From positions 2,294,001 through 2,358,000 of the forward strand of contig NZ_JALEBH010000001.1 in NCBI RefSeq assembly GCF_022758885.1: a DNA stretch of 64,000 nucleotides, read 5' to 3'. The position numbers were made by a program, and so were the translations under genes. Origin of the DNA: Sphingobium sp. BYY-5 (GTDB taxonomy: Bacteria > Pseudomonadota > Alphaproteobacteria > Sphingomonadales > Sphingomonadaceae). Positions 2,062-58,691 of this stretch are shown one piece after another. Every line of letters starts with the position of its first letter. Positions within the stretch are counted from its first letter, which is position 1. The notes under the pieces were generated by a model. It saw only the letters and a program-made list of their open reading frames with translations, was not told where the DNA came from and did not search any database.

Positions 2062-3917
2062 GCGGCCTTCCCCTGATCGCGCTGGTGGGCAATCCCAATG
2101 CCGGCAAGAGCGCGCTGTTCAACGCGCTGACCGGTGCGCGGCAGAAGCTGGGCAATTATCCGGGCGTCACTGTGGAGCGCAAGACGGGGCGCCTGTCGCT
2201 GGCGGACGGACGGCCGGTCGAGCTGGTCGACCTGCCCGGCACCTACAGCCTGGAGCCGGGAAGCCCCGACGAACAGGTGACGCGCGATGTGGTGATGGGC
2301 AGGCAGGTCGGCGAAAAGCGGCCCGATGCGCTGGTCATCGTTGTCGACGCCGCCAATCTCGACAATCATCTCCGCTTCGCGCTGGAACTGATCGCGCTCG
2401 GCCTGCCGACCATCGTCGCGCTCAATATGGTCGACCTCGCCACCCGCGACGGGCTGGAGCTGGATGCCGATATCCTGGCGCGCGAACTGGGCGTGCCGGT
2501 GATATCGACCGTGGCGGTGCGCAAGCGCGGGCTGGATCATCTGCGCAGCGAGCTGGAAACCCTGCTGAATGGTGCCCCGCCCGCCTATCCCGTCGGCCTC
2601 GAACAGGATTTCGACGCGGTCCGCAAGGAAGCCCGCCGCATCGCCCGCGCCGCGATCGTGCGCGAAACGCCCTCGCGCCGCCTGACCGCAGCGGTCGACC
2701 GGGTGGCGCTGCACCCCGTCCTCGGCGTCTTCCTGCTGCTCGGCCTGCTCTTCATCATGTTCCAGTCGGTCTATGCCTGGTCCGAAGCGCCGGTCGCGAT
2801 GATCGAGGGTTTTGCCGAAGCGATCGCCAATGCCGTGCGCGCCGCCATGCCTGACGGCATAGTCCGCTCCTTCCTGGTCGATGGCGTCATCAAGGGCGTC
2901 GGATCGGTGGTGGTGTTCCTGCCGCTGATCCTGATCCTCTTCTTCTTCATCCTGATGCTGGAGGCGACCGGCTATATGGTCCGCGCCGCCTTCCTGATGG
3001 ACGGATTGATGGCGAAGGTCGGCCTGTCGGGCCGCGCCTTCATCCCGCTCCTCTCCTCCTTCGCCTGCGCCGTGCCGGGGATCATGGCGACGCGCACCAT
3101 CGCTGACCCGAAGGATCGCCTGACCACCATCCTGATCGCGCCGCTCATGACCTGTTCGGCGCGACTGCCGGTCTATGCCGTCATCATCGGCGCCTTCATC
3201 CCGGCGCGCGACATCGGTTGGGGCATCGGGTTGCAGGGCTTCGTGCTCTTCTGCCTCTATGTCTCGGGCATCATCGGCGCGATGCTGGTGGCGCTGGTGC
3301 TGCGCCTCACCGTCACCAAGGGCGCGAGCGGCGGCTTCCTGATGGAGATGCCCAAATATCAGTGGCCCCGGCCACGGGACATCATCCTCGGCCTGTGGCA
3401 GCGCGCGGTCATCTTCCTCAAGCGCGCGGGCACGATCATCTTCACCTCGACCGTGATCCTGTGGCTGCTGCTCAGCTTCCCGCGCGTGCCCGACGGCGAC
3501 CCGACCAGCCAGGTCGATCATTCGATCGCCGGCCGGATCGCCAACGGCCTTAACGTCGTGCTGGAACCGATCGGCTTCAACCGCGACATCTCGCTGGCGC
3601 TGATCCCCGCGATGGCCGCGCGCGAGGTGGCCGTGTCGGCGCTCGCCACCGTCTATTCGATCGATGCCGGTGATGATGAGGCAAAGCTGGAACGCAGCCT
3701 GGGCGACCGGCTGAAAAGCCAGTGGTCGCTGCCCACCGCCCTCGCCTTCCTCGCCTGGTTCATCTTCGCCCCCCAGTGCATTTCCACCATCGCGGTGACA
3801 CGGCGCGAAACCAATGGCTGGAAATGGCCAGCCTTCATGGTCGGCTATCTCTTCATACTCGCCTATGTGGCGGCGGGCGTCACCTACTGGACCGCGATGG
3901 CGCTGGGCTTGGCGTAG
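2058..3917 (+). CDS. feoB: Ferrous iron transporter FeoB (GTPase-permease)
   Basis: A 619-residue inner-membrane Fe(II) transporter. The N-terminal G domain shows G1 GNPNAGKS (11-18), the GNYPGVTVERK switch region, G3 DLPGTYSL and G4 NMVD. A helical regulatory part follows, then a permease half with two GATE-type repeats and about eight membrane segments, including CAVPGIMATR and CSARLPVY. The ATG overlaps the feoA stop (ATGA) and has a CAGGAGG ribosome-binding site, so translation is coupled. It is shorter than the Escherichia coli protein (773 residues), as is common in alphaproteobacteria; no FeoC follows. Confidence 0.95.
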   Translation: MSGLPLIALVGNPNAGKSALFNALTGARQKLGNYPGVTVERKTGRLSLADGRPVELVDLPGTYSLEPGSPDEQVTRDVVMGRQVGEKRPDALVIVVDAANLDNHLRFALELIALGLPTIVALNMVDLATRDGLELDADILARELGVPVISTVAVRKRGLDHLRSELETLLNGAPPAYPVGLEQDFDAVRKEARRIARAAIVRETPSRRLTAAVDRVALHPVLGVFLLLGLLFIMFQSVYAWSEAPVAMIEGFAEAIANAVRAAMPDGIVRSFLVDGVIKGVGSVVVFLPLILILFFFILMLEATGYMVRAAFLMDGLMAKVGLSGRAFIPLLSSFACAVPGIMATRTIADPKDRLTTILIAPLMTCSARLPVYAVIIGAFIPARDIGWGIGLQGFVLFCLYVSGIIGAMLVALVLRLTVTKGASGGFLMEMPKYQWPRPRDIILGLWQRAVIFLKRAGTIIFTSTVILWLLLSFPRVPDGDPTSQVDHSIAGRIANGLNVVLEPIGFNRDISLALIPAMAAREVAVSALATVYSIDAGDDEAKLERSLGDRLKSQWSLPTALAFLAWFIFAPQCISTIAVTRRETNGWKWPAFMVGYLFILAYVAAGVTYWTAMALGLA

Positions 3918-21916: not shown

Positions 21917-22076
21917 ATGATGGTAAGTGACCATGAGCAGACGTTGTTCCCCCGCCCCTCTCCGTCGTTCCCGCGCAGGCGGGAACCCATCTCCCGCCAT
22001 TGCCCTAGGCACAAGGCCGGGAAGACATCGAAGACAGGCCGCAGTCGCCCTTCCTCCGCCTTCCCCAATCCTATTC

Positions 22077-22345
22077 CCTTCCAATGTAGGATTTCTTCTG
22101 ATCTATCCTTGTCGATGGACCAGCACGCCCTCCGCACCCGCCCTCCCCTGCCGATCACCGCCGCACCGGCGCGCAACTGTGACCCGCCTGTCGCGTCCCT
22201 GTCGCGCGGGCGGCGCGTCGGTGTGACCCTACAGGCGCGCCAATGGCGCGTCGGCGACGCATCGGCGGCGCATTCCTGTCGCGAATCCCCCGGAAATGCC
22301 CGGAAAACCGATGCCTGCAACGGTGTGAACTTTGGACCTGTGACC
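22077..22345 (+). repeat. 11-bp-periodic dispersed element, copy 1
   Basis: The left block CCTTCCAATGTAGGATTTC (22077-22095) and about 30 further bases match the copy at 58.35 kb. Eleven consecutive units of exactly 11 bp fill 22167-22287, for example TGTCGCGTCCC, TGTCGCGCGGG, CGGCGCGTCGG, TGGCGCGTCGG and CGGCGCATTCC (consensus TGKCGCGYNNN). The right block CGGTGTGAACTTTGG...CTGTGACC ends it (22321-22345). 11 bp is not a multiple of three, so no protein repeat is encoded. The gap from purH to the hydrolase (about 780 bp) holds no gene other than a duplicated gene tail. Confidence 0.8.
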
Positions 22346-22357
22346 CTGTTGGTCGGC

Positions 22358-22447
22358 TTATTTCGCTTGCAGCGCCGTCACGCACGCCGCCGGATCGACA
22401 TCCGTCCCCGTCGACGATCGCGCGTCGACATGGGTCACGACCGGCTC
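22358..22447 (-). pseudogene. Duplicated 3' fragment of the lipoprotein gene
   Basis: 90 bp identical to the last 29 codons plus stop of the lipoprotein gene at 31238 (reading EPVVTHVDARSS...ALQAK). No start codon or upstream part is present here, so it is not expressed as a gene. It was carried along by the inverted duplication and shows that the copy at 31.5 kb is the source. Confidence 0.9.
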
Positions 22448-23195
22448 AGGCGCGCATCGCCTCCAGCGCCTTGCCCACGGCCGCAATGCCTTCCGGCGAA
22501 GCGGCAAAGCCCATATGGGTGCAATCGACCTCGATCGCCTTGTCGCGCTCGCTGGAGCGGCCCCTGGCGCATTCGGGCAGGATCACGCCGTCACGTTTCG
22601 ACCAGAGCGCCACGGTCGGCACCGGCGGCTTTTCCTCGCGGGTGCAGGGAAAGGGCGGCCGGTCGACCGGGAAGCCCGACACGAGCTGATAGAGCCGCCA
22701 GGCATGGTTGGCGCGCGGGTCGCCGGAAAAGGGCGTGCCCATCGTCACCACGCCGCCGACCTTATGGGTGGCGAATTTCGCATATTCGCGTGCATAAAGG
22801 CCGCCCAGGCTCCAGCCCACCAGCGTCACCGGGCCGCTGCCTTGCCGCCGGATCGCATCGACCCGCCGGTCGATCTTTTCCAGGCTGTCGGGACGCGGCC
22901 CGAAATTGCGGCCCATGCCCCAGTCATGCGCGTCATAGCCCGCTTCGGTCAGGATGCGACGCAGCCAGTTCATACGCTGTTCCGACGCCATCAGGCCGGG
23001 GATCAACAGGACGCTGCGTCCGTCGCCGCGAATCTGGCCGGCCAGATTCGCGGCCTGCGCCTTTGTCCGCGCCAGATCGAAGGGCACCGACAAATTGCCC
23101 AATAGCTGTTGCAGCGGCGGAAGCACGGGCGCGCGCGGTCCCGGCGCGAGGCGATCCTTCCAGAATGTGCTGACGGCTTGAGCATAAGGTGGCAC
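22446..23195 (-). CDS. Alpha/beta hydrolase (esterase/lipase-like)
   Basis: About 249 residues. The fold is shown by LLIPGLMASEQRMNWLR near the N-terminus, the nucleophile elbow GWSLGGLYAREYA and a late histidine in VDCTHMGFAASPEG. Such enzymes hydrolyse esters; the substrate is unknown. No signal peptide. I chose the GTG at 23195, which has AGGA about 10 bases ahead; a TTG at 23249 would add 18 poorly conserved residues. The stop codon shares two bases with the end of the 493-bp repeat, so the repeat inserted exactly at the 3' end, possibly replacing the original tail. Confidence 0.8.
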   Translation of the reverse strand: MPPYAQAVSTFWKDRLAPGPRAPVLPPLQQLLGNLSVPFDLARTKAQAANLAGQIRGDGRSVLLIPGLMASEQRMNWLRRILTEAGYDAHDWGMGRNFGPRPDSLEKIDRRVDAIRRQGSGPVTLVGWSLGGLYAREYAKFATHKVGGVVTMGTPFSGDPRANHAWRLYQLVSGFPVDRPPFPCTREEKPPVPTVALWSKRDGVILPECARGRSSERDKAIEVDCTHMGFAASPEGIAAVGKALEAMRA

Positions 23196-31241: not shown

Positions 31242-31615
31242 AAATCCTCCGTTCGGGCCTGACCTTCCTCCTCGCCCTGCCGCTCGCCGCCTGCGGCGCG
31301 GGGGCCATCGTGCCGCCCCCCACGGCGGAGATATTGCCGCCGCCCGGTCCTCCGGCCAGCGCTTTCACGAAACAGGGGCCGCTGCTGGGATCTGACGCGA
31401 AGCATCTGACGCAGATGTTCGGCCAGCCCCGGCTCGACATTCGGGAAACCACGGTGCGCAAGCTGCAATTCGCCAATGGCCGCTGCGTGCTCGACGCCTA
31501 TCTCTACGCCCCCGCGCGCGGCAGGGAGCCGGTCGTGACCCATGTCGACGCGCGATCGTCGACGGGGACGGATGTCGATCCGGCGGCGTGCGTGACGGCG
31601 CTGCAAGCGAAATAA
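31238..31615 (+). CDS. Small lipoprotein, SmpA-like layout
   Basis: 125 residues. A signal peptide ends in the lipobox L-A-A-C with the lipidated cysteine at residue 19, followed by a proline-rich linker. A compact C-terminal domain (about 50-125) has LLGSDAKHLTQMFGQPRLDIRE, reminiscent of SmpA/BamE-type domains (a small domain read together with LGQP-like turns). The role is unknown. It is coupled to the EI24 gene. The last 29 codons and all downstream sequence to 32018 are duplicated in inverted orientation at 21955-22447. Confidence 0.85.
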   Translation: MKILRSGLTFLLALPLAACGAGAIVPPPTAEILPPPGPPASAFTKQGPLLGSDAKHLTQMFGQPRLDIRETTVRKLQFANGRCVLDAYLYAPARGREPVVTHVDARSSTGTDVDPAACVTALQAK

Positions 31616-32018
31616 GCCGACCAACAGGGTCACAGGTCCAAAGTTCACACCGTTGCAGGCATCGGTTTTCCGGGCATTTCCGGGGGATTCGCGACAGGAA
31701 TGCGCCGCCGATGCGTCGCCGACGCGCCATTGGCGCGCCTGTAGGGTCACACCGACGCGCCGCCCGCGCGACAGGGACGCGACAGGCGGGTCACAGTTGC
31801 GCGCCGGTGCGGCGGTGATCGGCAGGGGAGGGCGGGTGCGGAGGGCGTGCTGGTCCATCGACAAGGATAGATCAGAAGAAATCCTACATTGGAAGGGAAT
31901 AGGATTGGGGAAGGCGGAGGAAGGGCGACTGCGGCCTGTCTTCGATGTCTTCCCGGCCTTGTGCCTAGGGCAATGGCGGGAGATGGGTTCCCGCCTGCGC
32001 GGGAACGACGGAGAGGGG
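31526..32018 (-). repeat. 493-bp inverted repeat, copy B (source copy)
   Basis: Reverse complement of 21955-22447. It begins inside codon 97 of the lipoprotein gene and ends after a REP palindrome (about 31983-32010). Because the full gene is here, this is probably the original and the other the duplicate. The segment between the copies (22448-31525) could be flipped by homologous recombination without breaking any gene, since the lipoprotein tail exists in both copies. Confidence 0.9.
31628..31896 (-). repeat. 11-bp-periodic dispersed element, copy 2
   Basis: Inverted twin of copy 1. The eleven 11-bp units occupy 31686-31806 on the minus strand. It lies 12 bp after the lipoprotein stop. The stretch 31616-32190 contains only repeats and no gene that I can support. 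Confidence 0.8.
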
Positions 32019-32040
32019 TGGTTTCCTGCCATTTCCCATT

Positions 32041-39100: not shown

Positions 39101-39130
39101 GACGTCATCCCCGCGGAAGCGGGAATGACG
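39101..39130. repeat. REP palindrome (CGTCATCCCCGCG type)
   Basis: GACGTCATCCCCGCGGAAGC and GGGAATGACG form a near-perfect hairpin between the convergent hisN and macrodomain genes. It belongs to the same family as the palindromes around the GIY-YIG gene and inside the 493-bp repeat. Confidence 0.75.
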
Positions 39131-40093: not shown

Positions 40094-40149
40094 GATCCTC
40101 TCCTTCTCGAGTCGTTGATGGCCAAAGATAGACCCTGCCCGTGACGATC

Positions 40150-40207
40150 AGAAGAGACTGGCAGAAGAGACTGGCAGAAGAGACTGGCAGAAGAGACTGG
40201 CAGAAGG
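40150..40207. repeat. 13-bp tandem repeat, four copies
   Basis: AGAAGAGACTGGC occurs four times head to tail at 40150-40201 with no mismatch, and a partial fifth unit follows. It lies in the gap between the VOC gene and rpmI (269 bp). Perfect short tandem repeats like this often vary in number between strains by slipped pairing. Confidence 0.95.
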
Positions 40208-40245
40208 GGCCGGACGCGCCGCACCGGGATTTCCGCTCCGAATCG

Positions 40246-42149: not shown

Positions 42150-42179
42150 AGATGGGTTCCCGCTTTCGCGGGAATGACG
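42150..42179 (-). repeat. REP palindrome, right flank of the GIY-YIG gene
   Basis: On the minus strand it reads CGTCATTCCCGCGAAAGCGG then GAACCCATCT, the same family and tail as the left flank but in the opposite direction. It starts 13 bp after the nuclease stop codon and ends 13 bp before pheS. Confidence 0.9.
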
Positions 42180-58353: not shown

Positions 58354-58628
58354 CCCTTCCAATGTAGGATTTCCTCTGGTTTATCCTGTCGGATGGAACA
58401 GCCTTCTCCCGCTCCCGCCATCCCCCTCTCCCCCAGCCGCGCGTCCGCCCAACTGTCGCGCAGGTGGCGCGTGCGTGGCGCGCTACTGGCGCGTCGGTGT
58501 CGCCCATTCGTCGCGCTGCTGGCGCGTCGCGGTAGCGTTCCTGGCGCGTCCCCGGCGCATTCCTGTCCCGATTTCCGCGAATCGCGCCAAAAAATTTCCC
58601 GGAACGGTGTGAACTTCTGGCTGTGACC
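58354..58628 (+). repeat. 11-bp-periodic dispersed element, copy 3
   Basis: The left block CCTTCCAATGTAGGATTTC starts at 58354 and matches copies 1 and 2. Twelve 11-bp units fill 58443-58574, for example TGTCGCGCAGG, TGGCGCGTGCG, TGGCGCGCTAC, TGGCGCGTCGG, TGGCGCGTCGC and TGGCGCGTCCC. The right block CGGTGTGAACTTCTGG plus CTGTGACC ends at 58628. Unit by unit it aligns with copy 1 but has one extra unit and diverged bases, so it is an old, independent copy. It ends 63 bp before hisC. Confidence 0.85.
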
Positions 58629-58691
58629 TTCGCGAAACCCGGTCGGTCTGGTGCTTTGCCTTTGGCGCGGAAGCCGCTAAAGCCCGCGTCC

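What the first reader, a model, noticed from the sequence alone, without database searches (positions are those of the whole stretch)
58354..58628. Dispersed non-coding element built from exact 11-bp units
A conserved left block (about 45 bp), an array of 12 units of exactly 11 bp, and a conserved right block (about 24 bp) recur at 22077-22345 and, inverted, at 31628-31896. The units keep an 8-bp core (TGKCGCGY) with three variable bases, and the array has 11 units in one lineage and 12 in the other. One unit is about one helical turn, so the cores would lie on one DNA face, as for a row of protein-binding sites; a structured RNA is the other option. The period is not a multiple of three, so it does not encode a repeat protein. 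I know no named element that matches.
Basis: partly seen in the sequence, partly recalled or inferred. Interest (0 to 1): 0.72.

Follow-up and report, generated by a model that had tools for sequence, protein, structure and literature searches.

The report
HTH gene family with 11-bp arrays
The odd 11-base repeats belong to a scattered family of small bacterial genes whose complete members make a tiny DNA-binding protein, and the copies seen here are members that have no coding region for that protein but keep the promoter-like start, the start codon and the repeats.

Summary
The left block is a conserved 36-bp promoter-like sequence followed by a start codon (TATCCT-N5-ATG, leaderless-like). 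In the same genome and in related sphingomonads the same left block precedes a gene for a roughly 90-110 aa Myb/homeodomain-like HTH protein, and the 11-bp array follows that gene. The window copies are HTH-less members: left block, start codon, array, right block. At one locus the window's genome has an HTH-less copy where Sphingobium ummariense has a full one. 532 of 666 core pairs lie at multiples of 11 bp (shuffles: 0.7). In HTH-less copies the ATG frame is kept free of stops through the array, while the peptide is not conserved: at cluster level 5 in-frame stops against 24 and 27 in the other frames, and 9 against 23 and 22 in a second, array-selected set. No RNA structure, no Rfam match. 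Best model: a single-domain HTH protein, related to phage small-terminase DNA-binding domains, binds the units head to tail, one per helical turn, at its own gene and at the dispersed HTH-less copies. Binding is inferred, not shown; the physiological role is unknown.

The parts
58357..58392 (+). left block of copy 1 (promoter-like; TATCCT hexamer at 58382-58387, then 5 bases to the start codon)
   Evidence: model R1 hit 58354-58402, 62.4 bits; conserved in 81 distinct elements
58393..58626 (+). ATG-started open frame of copy 1, 77 codons plus TGA, running through the array and the right block
   Evidence: element L001/L047; ATG position conserved in the family
58453..58573 (+). 11-bp array of copy 1, 11 units in one phase
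58599..58617 (+). right block of copy 1 (family consensus CCnACnACGGTGTGAACTTCG; octamer GTGAACTT at 58609-58616)
   Evidence: 66 right blocks compared
22079..22114 (+). left block of copy 2
   Evidence: model R1 hit 22076-22124, 58.0 bits
22115..22117 (+). start codon of copy 2; its frame stays open past the right block
   Evidence: L003
22166..22286 (+). 11-bp array of copy 2, 11 units in phase
22316..22335 (+). right block of copy 2 (GTGAACTT at 22325-22332)
31859..31894 (-). left block of copy 3
   Evidence: model R1 hit 31849-31897 minus, 58.0 bits
31687..31807 (-). 11-bp array of copy 3
   Evidence: near-identical to copy 2
31638..31657 (-). right block of copy 3

Best explanation
The element is a member of a sphingomonad family of very small, probably leaderless genes built as: promoter-like left block, start codon, [HTH coding region behind a proline-rich N-terminus], array of 11-bp units, right block. 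Complete members make a single-domain Myb/homeodomain-like HTH protein related to the DNA-binding domains of phage small terminases. The three window copies have no HTH coding region. Inferred mechanism: HTH monomers bind the 7-bp cores (TGKCGCG with a 4-bp spacer, one helical turn) head to tail and form a short nucleoprotein filament on the array, on the gene's own array and, in trans, on the dispersed HTH-less copies. These copies would act as regulatory or titrating sites inside a transcribed unit, and translation through the array is kept free of stops. Shown by sequence: the anatomy, the period, the family, the HTH+/HTH-less swap at one locus, the conserved start codon, and the avoidance of in-frame stops. 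Inferred: promoter activity, leaderless translation, binding of the array by the HTH protein, and any effect on neighbouring genes.
For: Same left block and ATG precede HTH genes, and array plus (in Sphingobium) right block follow them. Of 36 short HTH genes scored with sequence downstream, 31 have three or more core pairs at multiples of 11 bp in the next 260 bp (26 of 30 with a recognised left block; 5 of 6 without one); of 8 longer or more distant HTH genes none does (L121, L122, L124-L127; L035, L036). Same locus, two states: HTH-less in the window's genome (L006), HTH+ in S. ummariense (L095) and G231 (L137). ATG at the fixed place in 81 of 81 elements and in 80 of 80 left blocks found without scoring the ATG columns. 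Of 80 loci fetched by array alone, 54 have a left-block score above 12: 45 have ATG at the fixed place, 1 GTG there, 6 a start codon one base earlier (4 ATG, 2 GTG), 2 ATG one base later. In-frame stops are avoided: set 1, 24 clusters, 5 against 24 and 27; set 2, 20 clusters, 9 against 23 and 22. TGTGAC units in the phase that puts TGA in frame: 1 of 24 and 1 of 20. No such avoidance downstream of the HTH stop (22/19/12). Predicted three-helix Myb/SANT-like fold; PHROG terminase small subunit match in 45 of 45 members, best E 6e-9. Of 27 genus genomes with arrays 24 carry the short HTH gene (39 of 94 have it). The unit letter K differs between genomes; in G200 the paralog with SSANRL has units T1:G8 (counted on L098, which carries the same protein) and the paralog with an SAHRL helix T5:G2.
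Against: No binding, transcript or protein data. After tree correction the HTH/array co-occurrence is not significant (about 2.1 pairs for, 1.0 against). K-letter variation is mostly one genome (p 5e-5 with G200, 0.04 without; 78 loci of 11 genomes, a part of the list), and G036 with SSAHRL also leans to G (T2:G5 in one element). In the window's own genome the stop avoidance is weak (7 in frame against 13 and 15, 15 elements). Sets 1 and 2 are not wholly independent: 24 and 20 clusters become 33 when pooled. Five of 36 short HTH genes have no or a poorly phased array (L019, L107, L110, L142, L118). The -35 part of the left block does not resemble TTGACA. In HTH+ members the array is not translated, so the reason for the open frame in HTH-less members is not explained by the binding model alone. 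G002, G009 and G029 have elements but no short HTH gene at E 1e-16.
Confidence: 0.6

Rival explanations
1. Non-autonomous mobile element: HTH-less copies spread like MITEs, mobilised by the HTH protein or by an unlinked enzyme.
For: About 20 left-block copies in one genome, deletion-like HTH-less forms, patchy presence (39 of 94 genomes with the HTH gene), sister genomes that differ at hisC (G203 has it, G025 does not).
Against: The HTH protein has no recognised catalytic domain. Left and right blocks are not inverted repeats of each other (consensus). Copies keep orthologous places: upstream of hisC in 19 of 70 genomes examined. The one recent duplication seen is a 504-bp segment that includes flanking sequence. 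No match to the HTH protein in the phage or plasmid records.
Confidence: 0.15
2. A gene for an arginine- and proline-rich disordered peptide encoded by the array itself; only composition and length matter.
For: Open ATG frame through the array; peptides with 15.7% Arg, 12.8% Ala and 11.4% Pro.
Against: Substitutions are spread over all three codon positions in close pairs. The right block falls in all three phases (21/14/6 and 27/20/12). The other frames have nearly the same composition. In HTH+ members the same array lies behind the stop codon.
Confidence: 0.12
3. Structured or repeat-bearing regulatory RNA (sRNA or 5' leader) bound by an RNA-binding protein.
For: Promoter-like left block; the arrays are presumably transcribed.
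Against: No Rfam match at gathering scores in the window. Folding hardly better than shuffles: mean z -0.47 and -0.32 on the two strands, and -0.33 and -0.39 against shuffles that keep the 11-bp columns; 4 to 7 of 41 below -2. The exact 11-bp phase has no evident meaning for single-stranded RNA.
Confidence: 0.08
4. Chromosome-organising sites (like parS, NBS or SBS arrays, recalled) read by the HTH protein, with the promoter only a relic of the gene.
For: Dispersed on both contigs of the genome; long arrays suited to filament formation.
Against: The left block and start codon are strongly conserved in HTH-less copies, which a mere relic would not be; bias in position along the replicons was not tested.
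Confidence: 0.08

Closest known systems
Phage terminase small subunit DNA-binding domains (PHROG 4044; SF6 G1P, PaP3, NV1) and their pac/cos repeats
   Different: Only about 90 aa; below the Pfam Terminase_2 cut-off in the members scanned; no hit in 50,697 phage records; chromosomal and dispersed. That small terminases act as oligomers on pac repeats is recalled.
BldC of Streptomyces (PMC5859096, start of abstract and passages)
   Same: Single-domain regulator (68 residues) that binds direct repeats head to tail as cooperative multimers and tolerates variable repeat number.
   Different: BldC is MerR-like with an AT-rich repeat; no MerR family appears in the Pfam scan of the 45 members; the passages seen describe no array-bearing gene copies.
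SARP activators such as AfsR (PMC10936776, two passages read)
   Same: Direct repeats with 11-bp spacing, that is, one helical turn.
   Different: SARP boxes are part of the promoter and AfsR's has two repeats; here the array lies downstream of the promoter-like block, with up to 12 units.
TAACTGA direct repeats of Beggiatoaceae (PMC4679880, abstract and outline read)
   Same: Dispersed heptamer direct-repeat sets in a bacterial genome with no known binder.
   Different: Different heptamer, mostly just upstream of start codons of many genes; no linked HTH gene mentioned in the abstract.
'LysR family transcriptional regulator' (name given by sources to the HTH protein)
   Same: Weak similarity of the HTH part to HTH_1 (E 0.0031).
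   Different: Below the Pfam cut-off, and too short for a LysR effector domain; the name is misleading.

Membership tests
Terminase small subunit | HTH DNA-binding domain of the small-terminase type | tested here: met
   phrog_4044 matches 45 of 45 members of A2, best E 6e-9; against it, Pfam Terminase_2 matches only 3 of 45 at E 0.01 and is below its curated cut-off
Terminase small subunit | oligomerisation core and a neighbouring large-terminase gene | not tested
   the protein has 91 residues; neighbours were not annotated systematically
BldC family | MerR-like winged HTH | tested here: not met
   no MerR family among Pfam matches of the 45 members at E 0.01
BldC-like mode of action | head-to-tail cooperative binding to direct repeats | not testable with these tools
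   needs footprinting or a complex structure
SARP | OmpR-type winged helix plus bacterial transcriptional activation domain | tested here: not met
   neither appears in the Pfam scan; the protein has one HTH domain
Rfam RNA families | match at the family's gathering score | tested here: not met
   0 matches in the window; other loci were not scanned
MITE / non-autonomous transposon | terminal inverted repeats | tested here: not met
   left and right consensus, compared by eye, are not inverted repeats of each other
MITE / non-autonomous transposon | target-site duplication and clean empty sites | tested here: inconclusive
   hisC region compared in 70 genomes; flanks too diverged to fix borders
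LysR-type regulator | HTH plus effector-binding domain | tested here: not met
   91-aa protein, HTH_1 below cut-off, no effector domain listed

The most novel reading that the evidence does not exclude
A chromosomal network of operator arrays that sit inside translated genes: a small-terminase-like HTH protein forms filaments on 11-bp arrays at its own gene and at dispersed HTH-less copies. Each copy keeps a leaderless promoter, a start codon and a stop-free but otherwise meaningless reading frame, so that ribosome-coupled transcription runs through the array and clears or gates the filament. The genome would thus hold 'read-through' control arrays in which translation matters but the peptide does not.
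Probability: 0.15. Interest if true: 0.82.

Novelty: new variant of a known kind. Interest (0 to 1): 0.62.

Why it matters
It links a DNA-binding protein family (named 'LysR family' by annotation sources, no Pfam match above cut-off) to a candidate target array, in a genus known for pollutant degradation (recalled). The array units, the conserved start codon and the stop-free but unconserved frame give directly testable predictions. A kept-open frame without a conserved peptide would be an unusual kind of constraint. For annotation, it shows that the HTH-less copies are gene-derived units, not plain intergenic repeats.

Tried and rejected
Structured RNA: folding of 41 arrays, both strands, against two kinds of shuffle, no clear signal; Rfam at gathering scores, none in the window. 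Repeat protein under normal coding selection: not supported, as substitutions are spread over all codon positions.

Openness beyond the right block and fusion with hisC: in set 1 the ATG frame looked open also after the right block (13 in-frame stops against 33 and 37 in 22 ungrouped loci). At hisC it is in frame with the hisC start in 12 of 17 genomes; it is open to hisC in 11 of 17, and both open and in frame in 9. In set 2 the openness beyond the right block did not clearly replicate (12-100 bases after: 18/26/46; 100-250 after: 52/35/54), and related genomes inflate the hisC count. I do not claim it.

Rows dropped or flawed: 7 of 48 HTH-less elements of set 1 without a right block within 330 bases; 16 of 80 loci of set 2 (2 duplicates, 14 without a recognisable start); for set-2 loci with a low left-block score the start was found with a rule that requires ATG, so their start codons are no evidence. 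In one search three control loci on the minus strand (L128-L130) were read on the wrong strand; one search did not find their HTH frame, so I left them out of the control (8 scored, not 11). Minus-strand loci were also misread and turned round. 23 of 93 genomes with a hisC match were not examined at that site (the less similar ones). One search lists 120 of 414 homologs; 45 were aligned. One search prints only a part of its matches.

Literature: searches listed no paper that, by title or abstract start, describes this element; most subscription journals are not in that library.

Full report
Observation. The three copies are present with the stated anatomy. The 11-bp phase is exact: 532 of 666 core pairs within 70 bp lie at multiples of 11 in 41 HTH-less elements, against a mean of 0.7 in 200 base shuffles; the opposite strand shows 2 of 28. 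In the whole genome the three-core pattern gives 80 hits against 9 for the reversed control. A left-block model, built from 20 copies of which 6 are this genome's, finds 20 places in the genome at E 0.1. Copies 2 and 3 belong to one 504-bp inverted duplicate.

What it belongs to. Printing the flanks of the hits showed that some left blocks run straight into a reading frame for a small HTH protein. In those elements the order is left block, ATG, HTH gene of mostly 87-114 codons, 11-bp array beginning at or near the stop codon, right block. The same holds in named Sphingobium records; in several Sphingomonas and Hephaestia records left block, HTH gene and array are present but the octamer GTGAACTT is not found within 400 bases (15 of 29 named loci have it). 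The protein has 414 homologs at E 0.001, 120 listed; the named ones are nearly all from sphingomonads and mostly called 'LysR family transcriptional regulator'. Of 36 short HTH genes scored, 31 carry a phased array; of 8 longer or more distant HTH genes none does. The window copies lack the HTH part. One locus shows both states: HTH-less in the window's genome, HTH+ in S. ummariense and in G231, with matching flanks (both sides in S. ummariense, right side in G231; G231 and S. ummariense may be one species, so this counts once).

Distribution. In 94 genomes of the genus, 39 have the short HTH gene at E 1e-16 and 27 have arrays by a strict pattern; 24 of the 27 are among the 39. On a hisC tree the association rests on too few independent changes to be significant, and G002, G009 and G029 have elements without a detected short HTH gene. 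In a sample of 119 genomes of the family, 117 of them from other genera, the array pattern is at control level outside the window's genome (5 genomes with one hit, 3 with one control hit). At hisC the element was found in 19 of 70 genomes examined: 17 with a left block (two of them weak, G001 and G029) and 2 with the right half only; in several others a dehydrogenase gene stands directly next to hisC. So the copies are old and stay in place, with losses or gains.

Start codon. The left block ends in TATCCT, five variable bases and ATG. The ATG is present in 81 of 81 elements and in 80 of 80 left blocks found without scoring those columns. Of 80 loci picked by array alone, 54 score above 12 for the left block; each of the 54 has a start codon at that place or one base from it: 51 ATG, 3 GTG. 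TATCCT-N5-ATG is the layout of a leaderless transcript. In Zymomonas (same order, recalled) 119 of 2,675 TSS-gene pairs are leaderless, the -10 consensus is TANNNN and the usual discriminator is 6 bp (PMC7566282, passages read).

Open frame. In 41 HTH-less elements the ATG frame is open to the right block in 37, the other two frames in 12 and 10. The +1 frame is penalised by ATGA at the start, so the first six bases were then left out: stops 8 against 41 and 42. Units of type TGTGAC avoid the phase with TGA in frame (11, 1, 12) while ordinary cores fill all phases alike (64, 73, 62). One representative per cluster: 5 against 24 and 27. As the idea came from this set, I fetched 80 further loci chosen by array alone: 61 HTH-less elements, stops 24 against 64 and 58, open in 46 against 20 and 27, TGTGAC 7, 1, 12. 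At cluster level they give 9 against 23 and 22, one-sided p 0.005; both sets together 13 against 37 and 35, p 1.5e-4, 33 clusters, so the sets share some related copies. Downstream of the HTH stop there is no such avoidance (22/19/12). In the window's own genome the effect is weak (7, 13, 15). Substitutions in close pairs are spread over all codon positions. The frame is therefore kept open, but the peptide is free.

Mechanism. A single HTH domain, a 7-bp core and a 4-bp spacer fit one monomer per helical turn, head to tail. BldC shows that a 68-residue protein can do this on direct repeats (PMC5859096), and SARPs use 11-bp spacing (PMC10936776). I therefore take the array as the HTH protein's binding array, autoregulatory at its own gene and acting in trans at HTH-less copies. 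Why the frame must stay open is not settled: coupling of translation and transcription through the array is my favoured guess, an array-coded basic peptide the main rival.

Novelty. The parts resemble known kinds (direct-repeat binders, terminase-type HTH), but the combination (leaderless-like gene, 3' iteron-like array, dispersed HTH-less copies with open frames) was not found in the literature searched.

Noticed in passing
21952-22455 and 31518-32021: Inverted duplicate of 504 bp, 498 bases identical, that contains copies 2 and 3 with flanking sequence.
   Followed up: partly
40149-40206: Perfect tandem repeat of CAGAAGAGACTGG, 4.5 copies; the stretch 40130-40230 has a single match in this genome.
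   Followed up: partly
21968-21985, 31988-32005, 39108-39125, 42157-42174: Palindrome-like TTCCCGCGnAGGCGGGAA, 4 matches with up to 2 mismatches against 0.08 expected; perhaps a REP-type repeat. Two of the four lie in the inverted duplicate.
   Followed up: no
58654-58683: Box CTTTGCCTTTGGCGCGGAAGCCGCTAAAGC just upstream of hisC, recognisable in many genomes of the genus; looks like the hisC promoter or leader.
   Followed up: no
L256 (G185) 3249-3367; L253 (G025), reverse complement, around 4669: Rearrangement breakpoints fall at or inside elements next to hisC: in G185 a reversed right-block-like sequence is joined to the second half of the array; in G025 homology with G203 starts just after the right block.
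   Followed up: partly
L026 (G029) 1497-1532: Left block plus ATG with no array, upstream of a gene whose start resembles ftsK by eye.
   Followed up: no
L138, L098, L339: HTH recognition helix SSANRL in one G200 paralog, with a G-type array, against an SAHRL helix with a T-type array in the other.
   Followed up: partly
L035, L036: Longer HTH proteins (297 and 135 aa) with the same left block but without a phased array.
   Followed up: partly
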